Shown piece after piece: positions 22,870 to 32,760 of a DNA stretch of 64,000 bases. This stretch comes from Novipirellula artificiosorum (GTDB lineage Bacteria; Planctomycetota; Planctomycetia; Pirellulales; Pirellulaceae): NCBI RefSeq assembly GCF_007860135.1, contig NZ_SJPV01000002.1, forward strand, positions 519,055-583,054, given 5' to 3'. A program made the translations under genes and the position numbers. The notes under the pieces are model-generated. The model did not search any database and was not told where the DNA came from. It saw nothing but the letters and a program-made list of their open reading frames with translations. Position 1 is the stretch's first letter, and every line of letters starts with the position of its first letter.

Positions 22870-23802
22870 ATGAATCAGTTGAAGCTCGGTATGGAACCCA
22901 AGGTGCAGCGGCCAGATTGTTGTTTGGTGACTTGCAGTCGACGCGCCTGGACGCTACTGGAGTTATTAGTTGTCTTGGCCATCATCAGCATCTTGTTAGC
23001 ACTTGCCACGCCTGCGGTGCAGCGGACCCGCGAGACAATGCGTCAAACCCAGTGTCGTAACCACTTGCGTCAGATCGGGATCGGTGTCCACCATCATTTT
23101 GCCGATAGCAATGTCGTCCCACACAACGGAGGCATCGAGGACGCTGCGCAGTCATCGACTCCAACGGGTCAGATCTCGATCTCGACCACTGATTTGGAGT
23201 TGCAGCGGACGTTTTGGTGGGGGATCGGTGATCCAAAGCAGCCGATTACAACCCAGCCGGGTTCTTGGGCCTTTATGCTCCTTCCCTATCTTGAACAGAC
23301 GGTTGCCTACGAGACGGTGGCAGTCGATCATGTTTGCCCTACCTACGTTTGCCCCTCGCGGGGCCGCGTCATGACCGGTCAACCCATGGACGATGCCTAC
23401 GGCACCTACGTCGCTGGTGGTCTTGCGTGGGGCCGGACGGATTACGCAGCCAGTGCGTTTGTCGCCCCGAACCAACCCGAGATCGTCTTGACCAGCAACG
23501 TCAGTGATGGATTGTCCAATACGGTGTTTGCGGGTGAAAAGAGTACCGATCCGCTGATCCAAAACGGTTTTAGTTGGTACTTTGACGAAGGCTACATGAC
23601 CGGCGGATCGGCGGGAACCAGCCGAACCGGACTGCGAGTTCTTAACGATCGCCCCGGAGTTGGATTCAAAGACAACTGGGGATCGGCTCACCCGGGATTA
23701 GCCCAGTTTCTTAAACTGGACGGTTCGGTCGTTGTGGTTAGCGTTGACGTCGACTCGCGAGTCTTTGTGAAGTCGCTTTTGTTCCGGGATGGGGGCATCT
23801 AG
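22870..23802 (+). CDS. DUF1559 pseudopilin-like protein
   Basis: Planctomycete-specific family with a type IV pilin/pseudopilin N-terminus. RRAWTLLELLVVLAIISILLAL is a prepilin peptidase site and methylated helix, preceded by a short basic leader. The motif QCRNHLRQIGIGVHHH and the C-terminal HPGLAQFLKLDGSVVVVS are family hallmarks. The ATG at 22870 is preferred; a GTG at 22834 and an ATG at 22891 are alternatives. It is 310 residues and likely assembles in a type II-secretion-like fibre. It lies 36 bases upstream of the cysteine-rich secreted peptide. Confidence 0.88.
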   Translation: MNQLKLGMEPKVQRPDCCLVTCSRRAWTLLELLVVLAIISILLALATPAVQRTRETMRQTQCRNHLRQIGIGVHHHFADSNVVPHNGGIEDAAQSSTPTGQISISTTDLELQRTFWWGIGDPKQPITTQPGSWAFMLLPYLEQTVAYETVAVDHVCPTYVCPSRGRVMTGQPMDDAYGTYVAGGLAWGRTDYAASAFVAPNQPEIVLTSNVSDGLSNTVFAGEKSTDPLIQNGFSWYFDEGYMTGGSAGTSRTGLRVLNDRPGVGFKDNWGSAHPGLAQFLKLDGSVVVVSVDVDSRVFVKSLLFRDGGI

Positions 23803-23838
23803 CGCGCCCATTCACAATTTCTTTTGGAGTACGATGAG

Positions 23839-24153
23839 ATGTCGAAGAAACTTGCTAGCTGGTTTATCGGTGGTTCCCTGTGTTTGTATGGATTGTCCCC
23901 CGGCCATACCGCTCCGCACAATGTGGGTGGTGGTGTAGCCTCCTGTTCCAGAGGAACTCGCGCGGTCATATGTAAAGACAATTCGGTATGTAGTTCAATG
24001 GAATATTACGTTTGCAATCACTCCGACGTTCTACCCGAGCCAGATCTTTGTGAGGAAGGCGGTATGGAAGACGATCCATGTTATCATAGTTATTATGAGT
24101 GTGGCGACCATTCGAACGCAGACGTCTCGTATGATGATCCCTATTGTGAATAG
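23839..24153 (+). CDS. Small secreted cysteine-rich peptide (8 Cys)
   Basis: A 104-residue protein of no recognised family. The N-terminal 26 residues (KKLASWFIGGSLCLYGLS core) form a signal peptide. The mature part is acidic, contains eight cysteines (in ASC, VIC, SVC, YVC, DLC, DPC, YEC and YCE) and many Tyr/His/Asp, and so could form four disulfides. GGAG lies nine bases upstream of the ATG at 23839. Its position between a pseudopilin and a peptidase/rhodanese/MauE gene set suggests it is the exported substrate or structural component of that set. Confidence 0.75.
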   Translation: MSKKLASWFIGGSLCLYGLSPGHTAPHNVGGGVASCSRGTRAVICKDNSVCSSMEYYVCNHSDVLPEPDLCEEGGMEDDPCYHSYYECGDHSNADVSYDDPYCE

Positions 24154-24463
24154 TGACGCATGGTTTGATGGTAGTACTCTTTGAGATGGAAGTACTTGCG
24201 CGAGCGCAGAGTTGGCACGGCCTTTTCCGAGCGTCGTTGCTGCGGGCCTGAACAGCGCGGTTCGTAGCACCTACAGGCGTCGGAACGCTCGCAATCCATC
24301 GTCTAGTTATGGCAATACGAAATCACAGTTTTACCAAGTTGGTCAGTTTTGTCTGCGACTCTAAAGTATTTTCGACGCGCCGTCGGTAACCGTTGTTTCG
24401 ATCATGGATACATGGTATCGACGGCCTGGCTTTCTCAAGAGAGTTCTTTCGACGGAATAATGT
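24154..24463. other. Intergenic region, no gene seen
   Basis: There is no open frame with protein-like sequence in this 310 bp stretch. It contains a pair of AGTACT hexamers within the first 50 bases and a moderately AT-rich end. A promoter for the next gene group is possible; no strong -35/-10 pair is recognisable. Confidence 0.4.
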
Positions 24464-25645
24464 ATGATGTCTCACTCGATGTGCTTATTACGTGTGCGAT
24501 TATTGGTTTCGAAAGCGGATTGTGACGGTGTGACAGCAGCCTTGATCCGCGGTGTGCTTTGCGCATGCGTTCTGCTCGTTGGGTTCCAGAATTCCTTGTG
24601 TGGTGCGGAGGCGGATCTTTCAGCATGGAATGAGACTCTTGAATCAGAACGGTTTGCGAATTGTCAGGTCAAGGTTTTTTGCCGTACTTGGAATGTTACC
24701 GGCACTTCAGTCAGTTCGATTTATCGTTTACCCGATACACCGCCACGTGCGTACGCCACGATTGAGGTCGTCCGCAGTGGAACCGACTATTGGATACGGA
24801 ATACCACCGGCCTTATCTGGGATGAGGAGTCCATGGAGTTTCCCGGTCAAAGGGCAGTCAACGCCAACTTGTTTAACGACCAAAAACTTCACCTGCAAAG
24901 CGCCGGTCCGATCGATACGGTAAGTATCGAGTCCCTAAGTGTTTCCGGTAAACTCGAACGCACCGCGTCCGACTTGCTGATGATTCCGGAATACTTACTT
25001 CCAGCTCGAATCTTCTTTGGTTTTGACTATTCGCCCTCGAAGCCGCTTCAGACTATAGTTGAAATGTACGAAGCCTCCTTGAACGATCGTCTGGATTCGA
25101 CGAGTCGTCGGGTGAGTGTCCTTGAATCGTCGACCCGGCCGGGACTGCCGAGCAAAATCGACCGTGAATTTGCAAGTCTGCCCTACGACGACGAGGGACT
25201 GGTGCTGGGGCCGCGCAACGTGAGCAACATCAACCGGACGGTTGCGTTCGATTTCCAGTGGGACGTCGTCGATGGATTGACCGTTCCAAAGCACTACATC
25301 CTGGTTGAGTCACTGGGAAGTGGCGAGGCCGTGTTGATCCATGACTTTCAATTGCTTGATGCGTCGTTCAGCGATAGTCCAGCCGACTATCCGGTTCGTC
25401 CGTTGATCGAAATTCCCGATGGATATCGCATTTCTGTGTCCGATGTTCCAGTCAGTTGCGAGTGGCGAGACGGCCGGATTCAAATGACAGAGGGGTCAAA
25501 CTTAAATCAATCGGCGACAGCAAAGTTTGTCTACGAGGTCCAAACGCAGTGGACAAAAGTGTTTTCCATTGTTGCGCTGGCCGCAATCGCAGGTGCCCTC
25601 TTCCTTATCGTTCGATCCCTGCGAAGGTCAGGAAAGGACTGCTAG
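24464..25645 (+). CDS. Secreted protein with C-terminal membrane anchor, unknown function
   Basis: Not recognised. The N-terminal signal sequence ends about residue 48 (ACVLLVGFQNSLCGAEA). A mostly beta extracytoplasmic domain of about 310 residues follows. It contains VKVFCRTWNVTG and SIYRLPDTPPRAYATIE early, and a FDFQWDVVDGLTVPKHYILVE-type beta region. A C-terminal transmembrane helix (IVALAAIAGALFLIV) is followed by RSLRRSGKDC. The topology is therefore outside with a short cytoplasmic tail. The beta-rich layout recalls lipoprotein-carrier folds, but I cannot assign it. It abuts the C39-like gene with no gap (TAG then ATG). Confidence 0.75.
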   Translation: MMSHSMCLLRVRLLVSKADCDGVTAALIRGVLCACVLLVGFQNSLCGAEADLSAWNETLESERFANCQVKVFCRTWNVTGTSVSSIYRLPDTPPRAYATIEVVRSGTDYWIRNTTGLIWDEESMEFPGQRAVNANLFNDQKLHLQSAGPIDTVSIESLSVSGKLERTASDLLMIPEYLLPARIFFGFDYSPSKPLQTIVEMYEASLNDRLDSTSRRVSVLESSTRPGLPSKIDREFASLPYDDEGLVLGPRNVSNINRTVAFDFQWDVVDGLTVPKHYILVESLGSGEAVLIHDFQLLDASFSDSPADYPVRPLIEIPDGYRISVSDVPVSCEWRDGRIQMTEGSNLNQSATAKFVYEVQTQWTKVFSIVALAAIAGALFLIVRSLRRSGKDC

Positions 25646-26557
25646 ATGAACATGTTAATGAAAATTGGCTTTCTGGCACTGCTCAGTACGGAGGTGCCAG
25701 TTGTAGGTGCGACCGTTGAACACGTTTCTGACTTTATGCGATTGCCCAAGAGCGGTGTTCAATATCATGTCGCTCAACCTAGAGATCCGATTTGCGGACT
25801 GCTGTGTGTGAGAGCCTCAATTTCGGCGCTCGGAAAGAACGCACCAGGGTTCGAAACACTTGTTCGGAAGCGATACCTGAGCAGCGAGTCTGGCAGTACC
25901 GTCGATGACCTCTGCAATGCGATATCCGATCACGACCTTACCCCGCATCCGTTTTCTAGTTTATCAACTAGGGCACTTTCGGGCGTCAAGCGACCCGTTA
26001 TTCTGCATGTGCGAAACAAGTTGGATCGCACAAAGTTCGGGCATTGGGTTCTTTATGAGGGTTTTACGGGGAAGGGCTTTGTAATCCAGGATTTCCCCAG
26101 TGAACCGGTCGTTATGCATCACGCCGAACTCGCCTCAATATGGGACGGGACGGGAATCGTCGTCGAAGACGCGGGTGAAGCAGCATCGGGTTCGTATCGG
26201 TTTAGCATCGCATGGATCAGTAGCTATGCGATTGTACTCGCAATCGTCGTTATCTGTTTTTTGCTTTCAACGATACTCGTTCGGATAGCACGGTTGGCCG
26301 ATAGAAGCAGCACGGCGAAACACCTTACCGAGAGTGGGCTAATATTTGTGATGCTCGTGTTTTCATTTCATGTGCTACGCTCTGACGGTTTCTTTCGTCG
26401 TTCGAGGTCTTATCAGAGATACTGGCAATGCACGAACGTCTTGCGGCACCTGAACTATCATACTCCGAGTTCGTCTCCTATCGCTCGCCCAACAATGTGC
26501 TTGTTGATTGCCGAATGCCAGAGAGTTTCAAACGTGGCCATATTCGTAATGCGTTGA
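25646..26557 (+). CDS. C39-peptidase-like membrane protein
   Basis: Bacteriocin-processing (C39) peptidase fold without an ABC transporter. The catalytic block is VAQPRDPICGLLCVRAS with the expected Gln and Cys. The His block is FGHWVLYEGF, followed by an Asp in VIQDFPSEP and a WDGTGIVV close. A signal anchor precedes residue 22, and two hydrophobic helices follow the domain (YAIVLAIVVICFLLSTILV; LIFVMLVFSFHVL). The frame runs 130 bases into the rhodanese gene in another frame; its last 45 residues look non-native, so the true C-terminus may be earlier or frameshifted. It probably trims or binds peptide substrates outside the cytoplasm. Confidence 0.75.
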   Translation: MNMLMKIGFLALLSTEVPVVGATVEHVSDFMRLPKSGVQYHVAQPRDPICGLLCVRASISALGKNAPGFETLVRKRYLSSESGSTVDDLCNAISDHDLTPHPFSSLSTRALSGVKRPVILHVRNKLDRTKFGHWVLYEGFTGKGFVIQDFPSEPVVMHHAELASIWDGTGIVVEDAGEAASGSYRFSIAWISSYAIVLAIVVICFLLSTILVRIARLADRSSTAKHLTESGLIFVMLVFSFHVLRSDGFFRRSRSYQRYWQCTNVLRHLNYHTPSSSPIARPTMCLLIAECQRVSNVAIFVMR

Positions 26558-26760
26558 ATATTCCATTGCATGCGAGTCATGTAGACCGGGAAGCGATCCT
26601 CGGTGAACCGGTACAATTGCGAGACAGTTCTATTGTCGTGTATTGTCAGTCAGAGGGGTGTCCCTACTCGGACATTGTTGCGCATCAACTTTGCGAAGAT
26701 GGTTTCGAGAATATCTTGATCTACCGTGGCGGTTGGCGAGACTGGATTGAAAATGAATAA
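26428..26760 (+). CDS. Rhodanese-like domain protein
   Basis: A single rhodanese domain of 110 residues. It has the CH2A-like VLVDCRMPESFKRGHIRNALNIP and the active-site loop VVYCQSEGC with the catalytic cysteine, then an IYRGGWRDWIE end. It has no signal peptide of its own. The ATG at 26428 has no strong ribosome binding site and lies inside the C39-like frame, so the domain might originally have been fused to it. Rhodanese domains move sulfane sulfur or sense redox state. The stop overlaps the MauE-like start. Confidence 0.8.
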   Translation: MHERLAAPELSYSEFVSYRSPNNVLVDCRMPESFKRGHIRNALNIPLHASHVDREAILGEPVQLRDSSIVVYCQSEGCPYSDIVAHQLCEDGFENILIYRGGWRDWIENE

Positions 26761-27238
26761 TTCTAGGATTCTCTCCCAGGTATTGGACGTAGCGTCGCTG
26801 CTACAGATTCTCGCGGTTCTTCTTGCAGTTCCACTCTTGGTCTCTGCGTTCATTCACCTAACGCAGCCCTACCTATTTCTCGACCATCTTCTTCGCTACG
26901 AAATTCTCGCGGGCCATTGGGCGGGTCTGGTTGTGATTTGCCTTCCGCCGTTTCAGATCCTTCTTGCCATGTCCTTGTTGGGGGAATCCCCTCACCGTAT
27001 CAGTCTGTTGTTGACAGGTGCGTTATACATGGCTTTTGCGTCCGCTCAAGGATATGCTCTTTGGGCCAATACCGCTGTTCATTGCGGCTGTTTTGGAAGC
27101 GGTGGTAGTCCGATCTCGCTGAGCTCCGTTGTTTCCGTGCTTTTCGCCGCTGTTGTATCATTCTTGCTGGGCACATTGTTCTTTTACCGAATATCGCCGG
27201 TATCAGCTACCGTTCATGAGACGAGATCCGTTGCGTAG
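26753..27238 (+). CDS. MauE/DoxX-like redox membrane protein
   Basis: A 161-residue protein with four transmembrane helices (LLQILAVLLAVPLLVSAFI; HWAGLVVICLPPFQILLAM; LLLTGALYMAFASA; VVSVLFAAVVSFLLGTLFF) and the MauE hallmark CGCFG in AVHCGCFGSGG. MauE works with thioredoxin-like MauD in forming disulfides of methylamine dehydrogenase, and relatives are linked to oxidative folding of exported proteins. The ATG overlaps the last codons of the rhodanese gene. No methylamine dehydrogenase genes are present, so the client is probably the local cysteine-rich peptide. Confidence 0.85.
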   Translation: MNNSRILSQVLDVASLLQILAVLLAVPLLVSAFIHLTQPYLFLDHLLRYEILAGHWAGLVVICLPPFQILLAMSLLGESPHRISLLLTGALYMAFASAQGYALWANTAVHCGCFGSGGSPISLSSVVSVLFAAVVSFLLGTLFFYRISPVSATVHETRSVA

Positions 27239-28979
27239 CCAACTCGTTTTCCCTCTCGCTGCTGTCCTGCTCTTCTGGACCTACATGACTGTATCGGTGG
27301 CGATTCAATCGGGGCCGAATATCGATGAGCGAGCGCACCTGGGCGCGGGGCTCTTTTTTTGGGAAACCGGTCGGCTCGATGCATATCTCGTCAATCCACC
27401 GACATCGCGGATTCTTTGCACGGCGCCGATTGCCTTGTTTCGCCAGCCGATTGATGCGGATTGGGTCAACATCGATGACGACTATTTTGCAGAGCTTGGC
27501 CGCAGGCCGGAGTTCGCGTTAGGCGGCAGTTATGCCGAACATGTTGGAAACCATCGGATTCAGAAGGACTTGTTTGGTGGTCGTTTGATCACGATTGGTC
27601 TGTCCATCGCCATCGTGATTGGGATTGGGGTTTGGACCTCAAAGTTAGTTGGGATCGGCGCTGCCGTCGTCGCGATGTTGCTTTGGCTCTGCTCACCAAC
27701 GGTGATGAACTATTCCGCTACCATTGGACCGGACATTTGGGGCGCCGCAGGAGGGCTAATCGCGGCCATCGGTTATGCTCGCTATCGATGCCATCGAAAT
27801 TTTGGATCGGCCGCCTTGTTAGGTTTGGCAGTGGCGGCTGCTATTTTGACCAAGTACACATGGGTTTTTCTGCCTTTGCTGCTTGTTGTTTTGGAAGTCG
27901 CCGTGTGGGTACGAAGGCGACCTGATGAAGAGTCGAGATCCACGTGGCGGTTCCGCTTGGCAGAGATGTTCTTGGCAATCATCGTTTGTCTTGTTGCACT
28001 CCACGTCATGTTTGGCTTCCGAGATGGGATGGACCGGATCGATTCCGTCGCTTATTGCAGCCGGCTGGGTCAGACCGTTGAAGAGTGGTTGGGACCTTTC
28101 CCGTCACCGATTCCGGTAGAGATCATTCGCGGGATCGATTTGCAGCGAGTTGATTTTGAAAACGGTAAGCCGTCTTATCTTTTTGGCGAGCATTCCGATC
28201 ATGGTTGGTGGTATTGGCATCTCGTCGCGCTGGCGGTCAAAGAGCCGATTGGTTGGCTGCTGCTCGTTGGATCAGGAATCGCTGCGCTATTGGTAGGCGG
28301 TTTCCGTCAGAGCACCTCTTCGAGTCAGACTCATCATCCCGATCGATGGATTGTGTTTCTGTTCGCGGCTTATGTAGTTGTTTTGGTGTGCTGTCAGACG
28401 GGGTTCACACGCTATCTGCGATACCTGCTGCCCGCCTATCCGTTTTTGTGTATCCTCGGTGGGCTTGGAGCGGATGGCTTGTGGCGGCATCGAGTTGGAA
28501 GGTTGGTCGTGTCCGCATGCCTTTTCTGGGCAGTGGCGGCGAACGTTTGGATCCATCCGCTGCCCCATGCCTATTTCAATGAGTTATGTGGCGGACCAAA
28601 ATACGGTCGTCGTGTGCTGCTGGGTCCATCGATCGAATGGGGCGAAGATCATTGGCGCGTGCAGCAATGGCTGGAACAGCACGAGGCTCTCGATTATCGA
28701 TTGATCGGCACCTATTCGCCACTCGATCTTCCGCTGCGTCTGTTGAAGCCTGCGCAATCCGAACACGATTTGCGCCATCCGGCCGCTGGCACGTACGTTT
28801 GGTCTGTGAACGAATTGTACAGCGAATCCCATCGGGATTCTCCATTTCGTTCCATGCGACCGAGCGGACGCATCGGCTACTCGTACCTCATTTATGAGCT
28901 ACCCGAGCAGTTTGAGAAAGGAGAACGGGATATCCAAGGTCCTTGCCCGCGCTCGACTGCCACACCCAATCGACTTTGA
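27216..28979 (+). CDS. GT39/ArnT-like polyprenyl-phosphate-sugar glycosyltransferase
   Basis: An integral membrane glycosyltransferase of the GT-C fold. The first loop carries the acidic pair in GPNIDERAHLGAG. Eight or more hydrophobic helices follow (IGLSIAIVIGIGVW, ALLGLAVAAAILTKYTWVFLPLLLVVL, WLLLVGSGIAALLVGG, YVVVLVCCQTGFTRYLRYLLPAYPFL region). A soluble C-terminal part follows (FNELCGG to YSYLIYELPE). The ATG at 27216 overlaps the MauE-like gene by 23 bases. Such enzymes transfer sugars from lipid carriers to proteins or lipids at the outer face of the inner membrane, so it may O-glycosylate a product of this gene set. Confidence 0.83.
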   Translation: MRRDPLRSQLVFPLAAVLLFWTYMTVSVAIQSGPNIDERAHLGAGLFFWETGRLDAYLVNPPTSRILCTAPIALFRQPIDADWVNIDDDYFAELGRRPEFALGGSYAEHVGNHRIQKDLFGGRLITIGLSIAIVIGIGVWTSKLVGIGAAVVAMLLWLCSPTVMNYSATIGPDIWGAAGGLIAAIGYARYRCHRNFGSAALLGLAVAAAILTKYTWVFLPLLLVVLEVAVWVRRRPDEESRSTWRFRLAEMFLAIIVCLVALHVMFGFRDGMDRIDSVAYCSRLGQTVEEWLGPFPSPIPVEIIRGIDLQRVDFENGKPSYLFGEHSDHGWWYWHLVALAVKEPIGWLLLVGSGIAALLVGGFRQSTSSSQTHHPDRWIVFLFAAYVVVLVCCQTGFTRYLRYLLPAYPFLCILGGLGADGLWRHRVGRLVVSACLFWAVAANVWIHPLPHAYFNELCGGPKYGRRVLLGPSIEWGEDHWRVQQWLEQHEALDYRLIGTYSPLDLPLRLLKPAQSEHDLRHPAAGTYVWSVNELYSESHRDSPFRSMRPSGRIGYSYLIYELPEQFEKGERDIQGPCPRSTATPNRL

Positions 28980-29313: not shown

Positions 29314-31002
29314 TCACCGAATCAGACTCATGTAGAAGCTAAACATTTGTTCGTCGTCGGTCGCGGCTTGGTTGACCGGAAACGCGAAGTCGAACGCCAA
29401 CGGTGCGGGGCCAAGCATCGGGATTGCGACGCGAAGTCCGACACCGGGCGAAACACGAAAGGTGTCTTTATGCAGCTCGGCGTCAGGTTCCACCGTCCCA
29501 AAGTCGACAAACGCGACACCCTTGAATGCATCGTCGGCGGTGATCGGGAACATGTATTCCACCGTGTTGAGGAACTTAAACCGGCCGCCGACCGAGACGC
29601 CGTTTTCAACGGGCCCTGCACCACGGAAATCGAACCCGCGGATGGTAGCGTAACCGCCCGCAAAGAAGTTCTCGAAGATCGGTGTTTCGTCGCCGCTGTA
29701 ACCCACTTGAGTCGAGTAGGAAATCGTTTGACGTCCACTGCCATCGGCGCGCTGGGCCAACAACCAATACTTGCGATACTCGAGCTCAAACCTGGCGTAG
29801 TTGAAATCACCAAACGCTTCTTCGAAGCTGAACTCAAAATAGTGCCCTTCACTCGATTGGATGGGGCTGTTTCGCGTATCGTGTTTTAAGGACAGCGTTC
29901 CGCTGTAGAGTTCGTTGTCACCCAGCACGGCATCGAGCTGGGGAATACCAAGCACGCGCGGGTTGGAAACATTGACGTTTTGACCACTCAAGCCAAGTGA
30001 AATTGACAAGTCGGGGGTGATCCGGTAGCCAAAGCTCAACCGGCCACCGAGTCGTTCTTCATCCCAATCGGTAAAACGCCGATCAACGAGAAATCCGCTG
30101 ACCGACATGCTGACGGGTTTGTAACCGAAAAGGTTTGGATCGGCAAAGTTGATGGTGTAACGATCGAAATCGCTACCGGGTGCCGCTTCGATTCGAAAGG
30201 TTTGACCGGCACCACGAAAGGCGGTTCCGCTGAACAGGTCTTGGAACGATCGGGGCCAACGGGTGATGTCAAAGTTGCGTTCGTCGAGCGTGATTTGGCC
30301 CGTCACGCCCGCATCGCTGTTGACGGCACCCCCGAGCATGATACGGCCCGTGCGCGCGGGATAGCCGTTGATGATCAAATCCGCTTCACGAACCGTCGGC
30401 AGCGGGACGTACGAAGTGGGTGGCGCCAGCGGATCGCTGTAGACGGTCCCGGGAGAAGTCAAACCGGGATAGGCGGTCGTTGGGGGCAACGCAGGGGTGC
30501 CACCCGGAGTGATCGGCGTGCCATAACTTTGGCCCGGGCTGTAGGTCACCGGCGGTGGCGTCGTGGTTGTCGCAGGAGGGTAGGCCGGGGGCGCCGTCGC
30601 CGGCACGCCATAGGCGCTGCCCCCATACGTCATCGGTGGTGTTTGCGGCGGAGCTGCCAACGATGGGGGAGTCGTGTAACTCGAAGGCGGCACGGAGGAG
30701 GTCGGCGGAACGTACGTGGTGGGTGGAACGTATGGGGGCGTGGTCGGGTATTGACGGGCGACGTACCGATCGCTGTTTGAGGACGCATCGCTCGTCACTG
30801 AATCGAACGGGGTCGCCGAGGGGTTCGAAACGAGTTGCGTGGCGGTCGTGTCTTCGGTCGCGACATTCGATCCGAATGGGCCGCCAGTCGTTTGACCGGG
30901 CGCGGTCAGCAGACGCGTGCAGCCGCTGGACATCGCGGAGAGCGCGACGACCAGCATCGTTGTCGCGAAACGTGCATCGGACAGAGGATTCAGATTTCTC
31001 AT
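29314..31002 (-). CDS. Omp85/BamA-type outer membrane beta-barrel lipoprotein
   Basis: The second half of a split BamA-like insertase. The ATG at 31002 gives a lipoprotein signal with the lipobox SSGC near residue 28; an ATG at 31047 overlapping the POTRA gene stop is an alternative. A 150-residue Pro/Thr-rich linker of VPP/TPP repeats leads to the bacterial surface antigen barrel. That barrel includes AYPGLTS, GGRLSFGYRITPDLSIS, HYFEFSFEEAFGDFNYARFELE, FFAGGYATIRGFDFRGAGP and the final FSFYMSLIR. The IRGF motif of barrel loop 6 (GGYATIRGFDFRG) is intact. It follows the POTRA gene on the same strand. Confidence 0.9.
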   Translation of the reverse strand: MRNLNPLSDARFATTMLVVALSAMSSGCTRLLTAPGQTTGGPFGSNVATEDTTATQLVSNPSATPFDSVTSDASSNSDRYVARQYPTTPPYVPPTTYVPPTSSVPPSSYTTPPSLAAPPQTPPMTYGGSAYGVPATAPPAYPPATTTTPPPVTYSPGQSYGTPITPGGTPALPPTTAYPGLTSPGTVYSDPLAPPTSYVPLPTVREADLIINGYPARTGRIMLGGAVNSDAGVTGQITLDERNFDITRWPRSFQDLFSGTAFRGAGQTFRIEAAPGSDFDRYTINFADPNLFGYKPVSMSVSGFLVDRRFTDWDEERLGGRLSFGYRITPDLSISLGLSGQNVNVSNPRVLGIPQLDAVLGDNELYSGTLSLKHDTRNSPIQSSEGHYFEFSFEEAFGDFNYARFELEYRKYWLLAQRADGSGRQTISYSTQVGYSGDETPIFENFFAGGYATIRGFDFRGAGPVENGVSVGGRFKFLNTVEYMFPITADDAFKGVAFVDFGTVEPDAELHKDTFRVSPGVGLRVAIPMLGPAPLAFDFAFPVNQAATDDEQMFSFYMSLIR

Positions 31003-31036
31003 GCAAGCGTCTTCATCGGAAGATTGCGAAGTAAAA

Positions 31037-32491
31037 CTAGTATTCATCACGAGGCACCACCTTGATGTCTGGCGCGTCAGCGACCTGAGGATTCGTTTCG
31101 AGCAGGTTGCTGTTTTCGATCCGGCGGCGATTCATTTCAAGCGATCGCCGATCGATCCAATCCCCCTCGCGAAGATCAACCATGTTCAACATCGTCGTTT
31201 CTCGCATCAGGTGGGGCTCGCCTTCGATGTTGACCAAGATCCGTCCGACTTTCCAACGGTCGCCCTCGAGAATCTCGTAGACCAAATCGACGGTATTGGC
31301 TTCATCACGCATCACCGTTTTGGGTTCGACTTCGGCATAAATGAATCCCATCTCGCCATACCCATAGGTGATTTCGCCGATATCACGACGCATCAAGGTG
31401 CCGTCAAACATGTCCCCGGCGTGAAGATTCAGCCGAGCTCGTAGGGATTCCTCGGTGATGAATTGGTTGCCAATGATCTTGACGTCGTTGACGGTAAACC
31501 GCGGTCCTTCGTTGATCACAAACGTGACCGTGATCCATTTGCCCGATTCGTCATAACGGATCCGACGACCCACCGTAGCCGTCAGAAAACCCAGGTTGTG
31601 GTAGTAGCTGGCCAAGGTGTTCACGTCATCGTCGATCATTCGCATGTCGGCGGTGTTGCCGATATGGCGAAGCAGACCGACCGCCGGGCCACGGCTCTTG
31701 ATGATTTTTTTCAGTCTTGCTTCGCTGACGATCGTGGCCCCTTTAATGACGATGTCTTCGATCCGCTCTTTGGGACCTTCGTTGATGCGAAAAATGACCA
31801 CGCCGGGGTCGTCCTCGTAGCCAATCGACGATTCAATCGCGACTTGGTTGAATCCTTCTTCTTGGTAGTAATCAATCAGTCGACGACGGGCCGATTCGAT
31901 CGAGAATTCGCTCAGCGGGTCCGCTTCATTGACGCCCGCGCGACCTTGGAGTTCGCGATTGTTGAGCGCACGGTTGCCATGCATGACCACCTTGGTGATC
32001 ACGGGCCGTTCATGCACTGCGAACGTGATGCTGACCCCGCCCGGCTGTTCATCGAGGTCGAACGTCACATGGTCGAAGGATCCCATATCGGTCAAACGAC
32101 GGACATCACCGAGCACGGTTTCATAGTCGTAGAAACGGTCTTTGCGAGTTTGCAGTTTTTGCATGATCAGATGCGAGCTGACGACCCGGTTGCCGACCAC
32201 CTTCACATCCAAAACGACCGAGTCCCCTTTTTCACGCCGAATAGCCAACCCATCCCTGCTGCGAACGTGATCCAAGAATTTTGGTTTTGCATCGGGCATC
32301 GGCCCACTTTGGCCGCCTCCGCCCCCGCCACCAAAGCCGCCACCACCACCCATTTGGGCTTCGGCGGTTCCTGCGACGAACAAGGCACTCAGGATGACGG
32401 GCAGCCAACACCTCCCACGCCATCGGTCGATCCCGGCGAGGATCGATCGGCTTTGTGAGCGGCAGCGGTTGTGGAAGATGGGTCGAGTCAT
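31037..32491 (-). CDS. POTRA-domain protein (N-terminal half of a split BamA)
   Basis: 484 residues made of a signal peptide (ILSALFVAGTAEAQ), a glycine-rich stretch (MGGGGGFGGGGGGGQSG) and five consecutive POTRA domains. Their starts are near VVLDVKVVGNR, VITKVVMHGNRAL, RIEDIVIKGAT, FTVNDVKIIGNQF and WKVGRILVNIEG. It ends right after the fifth POTRA without any barrel. In standard BamA the barrel follows in the same chain; here it is the next gene. The ATG at 32491 is chosen because residues before it in the longer frame (32665) do not look like protein. Confidence 0.88.
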   Translation of the reverse strand: MTRPIFHNRCRSQSRSILAGIDRWRGRCWLPVILSALFVAGTAEAQMGGGGGFGGGGGGGQSGPMPDAKPKFLDHVRSRDGLAIRREKGDSVVLDVKVVGNRVVSSHLIMQKLQTRKDRFYDYETVLGDVRRLTDMGSFDHVTFDLDEQPGGVSITFAVHERPVITKVVMHGNRALNNRELQGRAGVNEADPLSEFSIESARRRLIDYYQEEGFNQVAIESSIGYEDDPGVVIFRINEGPKERIEDIVIKGATIVSEARLKKIIKSRGPAVGLLRHIGNTADMRMIDDDVNTLASYYHNLGFLTATVGRRIRYDESGKWITVTFVINEGPRFTVNDVKIIGNQFITEESLRARLNLHAGDMFDGTLMRRDIGEITYGYGEMGFIYAEVEPKTVMRDEANTVDLVYEILEGDRWKVGRILVNIEGEPHLMRETTMLNMVDLREGDWIDRRSLEMNRRRIENSNLLETNPQVADAPDIKVVPRDEY

Positions 32492-32760
32492 ACAGTCGGC
32501 ATACCGAATAAAGATCACGGTCAAATCCTTTGAAGACCGGTCCGTGCAAGGAAAACGCACAGATCGCTCGGATCGGTGCTGCAACCATGCTGGCGCAGTA
32601 CCGAGATTGGTAACTACCAACGAGAAAGCGGCGACCACAAGGCAGATTTCCGGGCAAATCGCCACGAGAAACGGAAATCGAGTAAAGTTCGGCTCGTGAA
32701 ACGAAAGAAAAGCAGTTTCACGGGGACGGAAGTCTCACGGGGACGAGCGCGATGCCGCCA

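What the first reader, a model, noticed from the sequence alone, without database searches (positions are those of the whole stretch)
22870..28979. Candidate new system: pseudopilin, 8-Cys secreted peptide, C39-like peptidase, rhodanese, MauE-like protein and GT39-like transferase in one gene set
Seven same-strand genes, five with overlaps or no gap, join a secreted cysteine-rich peptide to a peptidase fold, a sulfur/redox relay (rhodanese, MauE with CGCFG) and a membrane glycosyltransferase, with a pseudopilin in front. No ABC transporter and no methylamine dehydrogenase are present. The simplest model is export, disulfide formation, trimming and sugar modification of the small peptide, perhaps a toxin, signal or surface component.
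Basis: inference. Interest (0 to 1): 0.75.

Follow-up and report, generated by a model that had tools for sequence, protein, structure and literature searches.

The report
Planctomycete system maturing secreted disulfide-rich peptides
This stretch of a planctomycete genome carries an apparently undescribed gene set, found at more than 50 places in related bacteria, that looks built to export a small cysteine-rich peptide, cut off its leader after a Gly-Gly mark outside the cell membrane and lock it with disulfide bonds; this matters because it points to a large unexplored family of secreted bacterial peptides.

Summary
The core is (1) an exported ~75-aa peptide with mostly 6-10 Cys, whose leader ends in Gly-Gly just before the first Cys (33 of 39 by script; shuffles average 4.5, maximum 11; 1 of 23 control ORFs); (2) an uncharacterised membrane-anchored protein; (3) one fused protein, signal peptide - C39 peptidase - two TM - rhodanese; (4) MauE. 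DUF1559 pseudopilins (fused to MauE in 7 loci) and GT39 transferases (12 loci) are accessories. Catalytic Cys/His/Asp of C39, a CxxxxC pair in rhodanese and CxC in MauE are almost invariant. The closest solved C39 relatives (ComA, LahT, PCAT1) are double-glycine leader peptidases.

Best model: Sec export, leader removal by an extracytoplasmic C39 domain, disulfide formation by rhodanese/MauE. Closest precedents: pediocin-type maturation and periplasmic FapD. No description was found in the open literature searched. The peptide's role (toxin, signal or surface part) is unknown. Nothing was tested experimentally.

The parts
22870..23802 (+). DUF1559 pseudopilin (prepilin-type N-terminus); accessory member
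   Evidence: Pfam SBP_bac_10/DUF1559 8e-27 and N_methyl 3e-5. DUF1559 lies within 5 kb in 34 of 54 loci and is fused in frame to MauE in 7.
23839..24153 (+). precursor of the secreted cysteine-rich peptide (104 aa; leader of 32 aa ending NVGGG, then about 72 aa with 8 Cys)
   Evidence: counterparts at nearly all loci with enough flanking DNA
23926..23934 (+). Gly-Gly-Gly at the leader/core border, predicted C39 cleavage site
   Evidence: GG before the first core Cys in 33 of 39 peptides; shuffles mean 4.5, maximum 11; 1 of 23 control ORFs
24464..25645 (+). 393-aa core protein: signal peptide, large extracytoplasmic beta-rich domain, C-terminal TM and basic tail; possible peptide-holding subunit
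   Evidence: family recognised by profile in 36 loci; no Pfam or PDB relative; topology; fused in frame to C39-rhodanese in L065, L076, L084
25646..26557 (+). C39 peptidase domain with signal peptide and two TM helices (N-terminal half of the C39-rhodanese protein); Cys at 25793, His at 26042, Asp at 26090
   Evidence: Pfam Peptidase_C39 3e-8; PDB profile hits ComA, PCAT1, LahT; Foldseek; conservation Cys 50/52, His 54/54, Asp 49/54
26386..26428 (+). frame break separating C39 from rhodanese in this genome; intact fusions exist in relatives
26428..26760 (+). rhodanese domain (C-terminal half of the C39-rhodanese protein) with CQSEGC loop, Cys at 26644 and 26659
   Evidence: Pfam Rhodanese 5e-17; loop Cys 56/56 and 54/55 across the family
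26753..27238 (+). MauE membrane protein with CGCFG
   Evidence: Pfam MauE 7e-16; follows C39-rhodanese in 52 of 54 loci; CxC 53/53 and 53/54
27216..28979 (+). GT39/PMT-like membrane glycosyltransferase (587 aa); accessory member
   Evidence: PMT_2 3e-5, just below cut-off; homologue just downstream in 12 loci; DE/NE motif in its first loop in 10 of 12

Best explanation
An extracytoplasmic maturation system for a secreted, disulfide-rich peptide. (1) The precursor is exported by Sec through its hydrophobic leader. (2) The 393-aa anchored protein holds or presents it on the outer face of the cytoplasmic membrane. (3) The membrane-bound C39 domain, on the same side, cuts after Gly-Gly and frees a ~75-residue core. 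(4) The fused rhodanese, using its Cys-x4-Cys pair, passes electrons or persulfide sulfur to MauE (Cys-Gly-Cys), which re-oxidises it at the membrane, so that the core cysteines become disulfides. (5) A dedicated pseudopilin probably helps move the product outward, and in some species a GT39 enzyme adds sugar. Shown by computation: gene set, fusions, motifs, conserved catalytic residues, relationship of C39 to double-glycine peptidases, predicted topology. Inferred: every catalytic step, the order of steps and the outer-membrane step. The role of the product is open; an antagonistic or signalling peptide is most likely, judged from tandem copies with diverging cores and patchy spread.
For: Conserved core in 54 loci, peptide gene beside it. 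GG just before the first core Cys in 33/39 by script against shuffle mean 4.5 and maximum 11; 34/39 peptides but 1/29 and 4/50 co-encoded secreted proteins have GG at residues 19-42; 1/23 control Cys-rich ORFs. Core Cys count even in 32/33, though controls are 18/23 even. C39 closest to ComA peptidase domain (1e-12), PCAT1 (5e-8), LahT (5e-6); fold match to LahT with leader peptide, target TM 0.78 and rmsd 1.8. C39 Cys 50/52, His 54/54, Asp 49/54; rhodanese Cys 56/56 and 54/55; MauE Cys 53/53 and 53/54. Topology: loop between the two TM positive in 44/50. Fusions: anchor with C39-rhodanese in 3 loci, MauE with pseudopilin in 7. Tandem peptide paralogues: leaders mostly more alike than cores, e.g. 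95% against 43%. Known logic: PedC assists disulfides of pediocin (PMC5465099); FapD is an active Sec-exported C39 (PMC5557850).
Against: No biochemistry. Four of 39 peptides lack GG (two have GA, as known C39 substrates sometimes do; two have neither). L037, L083, L087 and the divergent L043/L044 show no peptide nearby; L043/L044 also lack the catalytic Cys. Leaders do not clearly carry the -7 and -12 hydrophobic residues that LahT150 requires; -4 is only mostly hydrophobic. In the window itself the C39-rhodanese gene is broken by a frame change, so this copy may be inactive. The anchor model was poor (pLDDT 47), so its role is a guess. No outer-membrane exporter or immunity gene was identified.
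Confidence: 0.72

Rival explanations
1. The product is a structural or adhesive part of a pseudopilus or surface fibre, not a free peptide. DUF1559 forms the fibre, the cysteine-rich peptide is a tip or coat subunit, and C39 licenses assembly, much as FapD does for Fap amyloid.
For: DUF1559 within 5 kb in 34/54 loci, mostly just after MauE or just upstream; MauE-pseudopilin fusions in 7 loci; periplasmic C39 precedent FapD is needed for amyloid fibre secretion (PMC5557850).
Against: 20 of 54 loci show no DUF1559 within 5 kb (some are cut by contig ends); DUF1559 genes are also found in distal flanks (0.028/kb against 0.066/kb nearby); peptides are not repetitive or amyloid-like; no FapF-like pore was seen.
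Confidence: 0.3
2. A sulfur or redox-sensing module in which C39 is a catalytically idle binding domain and the peptide is its ligand, a thiol sensor.
For: Rhodanese and MauE are sulfur/redox proteins; in the divergent G462 copies (L043/L044) C39 has lost its Cys and no peptide or anchor is seen.
Against: Elsewhere the C39 Cys (50/52), His (54/54) and Asp (49/54) are kept, and the cognate peptides carry GG where such peptidases cut.
Confidence: 0.08
3. The Gly-Gly is only an ordinary signal peptidase I site of secreted Cys-rich proteins, and C39 acts on something else.
For: Gly is tolerated at -1 by signal peptidase I (general knowledge).
Against: GG ends a median 15 residues past the most hydrophobic stretch, far for a usual c-region; position -2 is invariantly Gly where signal peptidase is indifferent, and -3 includes bulky or charged residues such as F, R, K, E, D; co-encoded secreted proteins lack GG (1/29, 4/50).
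Confidence: 0.07
4. In the window the rhodanese is a true separate cytoplasmic enzyme and the set is a loose neighbourhood.
For: The rhodanese frame stays open with its own ATG at 26428.
Against: Relatives encode one fused protein with rhodanese predicted outside, and homology extends upstream of that ATG.
Confidence: 0.05

Closest known systems
Peptidase-containing ABC transporters (PCAT/AMS: ComA, LahT, PCAT1) and double-glycine class II bacteriocins
   Same: C39 fold and catalytic residues; substrate leader ends in Gly-Gly (sometimes Gly-Ala) before a Cys-bearing core
   Different: No ABC transporter; C39 carries a signal peptide, is predicted to face outside and is fused to rhodanese; precursors carry a Sec-type hydrophobic leader
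FapD, periplasmic C39 peptidase of Pseudomonas Fap amyloid secretion (PMC5557850)
   Same: Sec-exported C39 acting in the periplasm, with Sec-exported components as likely substrates
   Different: No rhodanese or MauE partner is described for FapD in the passages read; its substrate was left unclear; Fap amyloid subunits and the FapF pore are not seen here
Pediocin PA-1 cluster (PedA, PedC, PedD)
   Same: Logic: Gly-Gly leader Cys peptide, C39 peptidase, and a disulfide accessory protein (PedC)
   Different: Here the oxidant would be a rhodanese/MauE pair, not PedC; export is by Sec; no known immunity gene
Methylamine utilisation (mau) cluster, MauE
   Same: MauE family protein with paired cysteines, thought to support disulfide formation (general knowledge)
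   Different: No methylamine dehydrogenase genes in the set; MauE here follows C39-rhodanese and may be fused to a pseudopilin

Membership tests
Peptidase family C39 (PF03412) | profile match and Cys-His-Asp catalytic residues | tested here: met
   33.9 bits against cut-off 22; Cys 50/52, His 54/54, Asp 49/54
Peptidase family C39 (PF03412) | cleavage of a substrate after Gly-Gly | not testable with these tools
   motif present in putative substrates; no assay
PCAT/AMS bacteriocin transporter | C39 domain fused to ABC transporter TMD and NBD | tested here: not met
   C39 followed by two TM and rhodanese; no ABC gene in the window's gene set
Class II bacteriocin cluster | precursor with Gly-Gly leader | tested here: met
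   33/39 by script
Class II bacteriocin cluster | dedicated ABC exporter and immunity gene | tested here: not met
   no ABC exporter in the set; no immunity family recognised
Class II bacteriocin cluster | antibacterial activity | not testable with these tools
   needs bioassay
Fap amyloid system | Sec-exported C39 (FapD-like) | tested here: met
   signal-peptide-like N-termini and predicted topology
Fap amyloid system | FapB/C/E amyloid repeats and FapF pore | tested here: inconclusive
   none seen in ORF lists or Pfam hits of the window set; no dedicated search made
Rhodanese (PF00581) | profile match and active-site Cys | tested here: met
   62.8 bits; Cys 56/56, plus a second Cys at +5 in 54/55
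MauE (PF07291) | profile match with paired Cys | tested here: met
   59.2 bits; CxC
Methylamine utilisation cluster | methylamine dehydrogenase genes nearby | tested here: not met
   absent from the gene set
GT39 / PMT | curated PMT_2 cut-off and DE motif | tested here: inconclusive
   24.6 against 26.1 bits in the window; homologue L005 51.3 bits; DE/NE motif in 10 of 12

The most novel reading that the evidence does not exclude
A new kind of peptide secretion-maturation system in which Sec-exported Gly-Gly precursors are cut outside the cytoplasmic membrane by a membrane-anchored C39-rhodanese enzyme and oxidised through MauE, yielding a large and diverse class of planctomycete disulfide-rich peptides used in competition or signalling, delivered by a dedicated pseudopilus.
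Probability: 0.4. Interest if true: 0.88.

Novelty: new variant of a known kind. Interest (0 to 1): 0.76.

Why it matters
[quoted passage not shown] It also proposes a concrete role for MauE and for a CxxxxC rhodanese as a disulfide relay, and ties one set of the planctomycete DUF1559 pseudopilins to a definite pathway.

Tried and rejected
Chance neighbourhood: rejected by 52/54 co-occurrence of C39-rhodanese and MauE and by fusions. Separate rhodanese gene: rejected from fused relatives. Anchor as LolA-like: suggested only by predicted secondary structure; no Pfam or PDB match, LolA and LolA_like profiles find nothing in the relatives, AF2 with 4 sequences failed (pLDDT 47) and its fold search is meaningless. 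Plasmid carriage: no full-length match; the listed matches cover only the rhodanese end. Promoter and terminator scans are no better than shuffles. Literature: no paper of the open-access library holds three of planctomycete/C39/rhodanese/MauE; other searches gave only precedents. Even Cys count is weak evidence, since controls are also mostly even.
Full report
WHAT IS THERE. The window lies in a 9.2-Mb planctomycete genome (phylum inferred from the named relatives), contig 2 at 519055-583054. Between 22870 and 28979 the + strand carries, in order: a DUF1559 pseudopilin; a 104-aa secreted peptide with 8 Cys behind its leader; a 393-aa protein of no known family; a C39-like peptidase; a rhodanese; MauE; and a GT39-like transferase. 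The last five genes touch or overlap.

CORRECTION OF THE ANATOMY. Relatives in the same order (L003-L006) encode C39 and rhodanese as one protein of 335-349 aa, with a signal peptide, the C39 domain, two TM helices and the rhodanese. The same holds in nearly all of the 54 loci. In the window the two halves lie in different frames and overlap, and rhodanese homology begins before the rhodanese ATG. The window gene is thus a fusion split by a frame break. Intact copies exist in relatives. Whether the break is a real mutation or an assembly error cannot be told here. L058 shows another break inside C39, and the peptides of L067, L077 and L081 look frame-broken.

CONSERVATION. The single window protein found 3 of 118 genomes of the order. 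Profiles built from the first relatives found full-length fusions in more genomes of a phylum sample (392 genomes), in about 14 of 170 genomes of one other family and in about 24 of 241 of the window's family, up to five copies in one genome. The distribution is patchy. In a tree of 51 proteins the families interleave (11 label changes, least possible 5, shuffled mean 17.8; many branches weak), which fits duplication and transfer. MauE follows C39-rhodanese in 52 of 54 loci (exceptions L078 and L094); the 393-aa family is recognised beside it in 36, and several of the rest are cut by contig ends. It is fused in frame to C39-rhodanese in L065, L076 and L084. MauE is fused in frame to a DUF1559 pseudopilin in L075, L080, L081, L085, L087, L090 and L091, and to a GT2 glycosyltransferase-like domain in L041. 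DUF1559 lies within 5 kb in 34 of 54 loci, 0.066 per kb against 0.028 in the distal flanks. A GT39 homologue lies just downstream in 12 loci. Loci were chosen by C39-rhodanese alone, so these associations are not built into the search.

THE PEPTIDE. Nearly every locus with enough flanking DNA has an exported ~100-120-aa Cys-rich ORF just upstream of the 393-aa gene, or after MauE in L038, L039 and L056. I compiled 39 of them. In 33 the leader ends in Gly-Gly at most 9 residues before the first core Cys (35 by eye); 2000 shuffles gave a mean of 4.5 and a maximum of 11. Two more have Gly-Ala; L074 and L095 have neither. The control of other Cys-rich secreted-like ORFs gave 1 of 23, and other exported proteins of the same loci 1 of 29 and 4 of 50 against 34 of 39. 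The leader is 31 aa and the core 76 aa in the median. Core Cys numbers are 6, 8 or 10 in 32 of 33, but controls are even in 18 of 23, so this adds little. In the tandem paralogues of L038 and L039 leaders are better kept than cores, for instance 95% against 43%. Loci without a recognisable peptide are L037, L083, L087 and the divergent L043/L044.

THE ENZYMES. The profile of C39-rhodanese finds, for its first half, the ComA peptidase domain (1e-12), PCAT1 (5e-8) and LahT (5e-6), all double-glycine leader peptidases, and for its second half rhodaneses. An AlphaFold model (mean pLDDT 68, 80-90 in most of the C39 domain) matches ComA and LahT bound to a leader peptide with target TM 0.77-0.81. 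The C39 Cys is kept in 50/52, His in 54/54, Asp in 49/54; the two loop Cys of the rhodanese in 56/56 and 54/55; the two Cys of MauE in 53/53 and 53/54. The loop between the TM helices is positively charged in 44 of 50, which places both C39 and rhodanese outside the cytoplasmic membrane by the positive-inside rule. The 393-aa family has a signal peptide, a large outside domain and a C-terminal TM with basic tail; no homologue of known structure or name was found.

HOW IT MOST LIKELY WORKS. Sec exports the precursor; the anchored protein presents it; the C39 domain cuts after Gly-Gly; rhodanese and MauE pass electrons (or persulfide) so that the core cysteines are oxidised; a pseudopilin probably helps release; GT39 may add sugar in some species. 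The motif, residues, fusions and topology are computed; the catalytic steps are inferred. The toxin, signal or surface role is open; I lean to antagonism or signalling because of tandem copies, diverging cores, patchy spread and apparent decay.

COMPARISON. It works like pediocin-type maturation, with a Gly-Gly leader, a C39 peptidase and a disulfide helper (PMC5465099), but is not a PCAT system: there is no ABC transporter and C39 is predicted outside. The best precedent for an exported C39 is FapD, which is proteolytically active in the periplasm and whose target was left unclear (PMC5557850). LahT150 needs hydrophobic residues at -4, -7 and -12 (PMC10885120); here -4 is often Val, Ala, Leu, Ile or Phe, and the others are not clear. 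No paper of the searched library describes the set; most subscription papers and preprints are not covered.

LIMITS. Many loci come from fragmented assemblies, so single frame breaks may be errors. Spread outside the phylum was not tested. The gene finder for peptides was a simple script with hand-checked starts. No experiment was possible.

Noticed in passing
window 29314-32665 (-): An Omp85/BamA-type protein appears split into a POTRA-only ORF (31037-32665, four POTRA, 2e-48) and a separate barrel ORF (29314-31050, Omp85 7e-51) with its own N-terminal export-like start; the ORFs overlap by 14 bp.
   Followed up: partly
L080 (6458-6826, oriented) and L081 (6931-7298, oriented): The same locus is 99.6-100% identical in two species-level genomes, yet the peptide gene differs by an indel that breaks its frame at the Gly-Gly.
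   Followed up: partly
L067, L077, L006, L058: Further frame breaks in peptide, MauE or C39 genes of this system, suggesting frequent decay or assembly errors.
   Followed up: no
L043 9108-10765 and L044 9413-11067: Two near-identical divergent cassettes in one genome (G462) keep rhodanese and MauE, but C39 has lost its Cys and no peptide or 393-aa protein is seen; they follow three large ORFs of 800-868 aa, at least two with secreted-looking starts.
   Followed up: no
L051 4096-4467 (-): A 123-aa exported metallothionein-like ORF very rich in Cys (CGCVDCRCPNCRGVCTCETCLCGSCGC), unrelated to the peptides here.
   Followed up: no
L041 10225-11475 (oriented): MauE fused in frame to a GT2 polyprenyl-phosphate-mannose-synthase-like domain, next to a GT39 homologue; it could supply the sugar donor.
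   Followed up: partly
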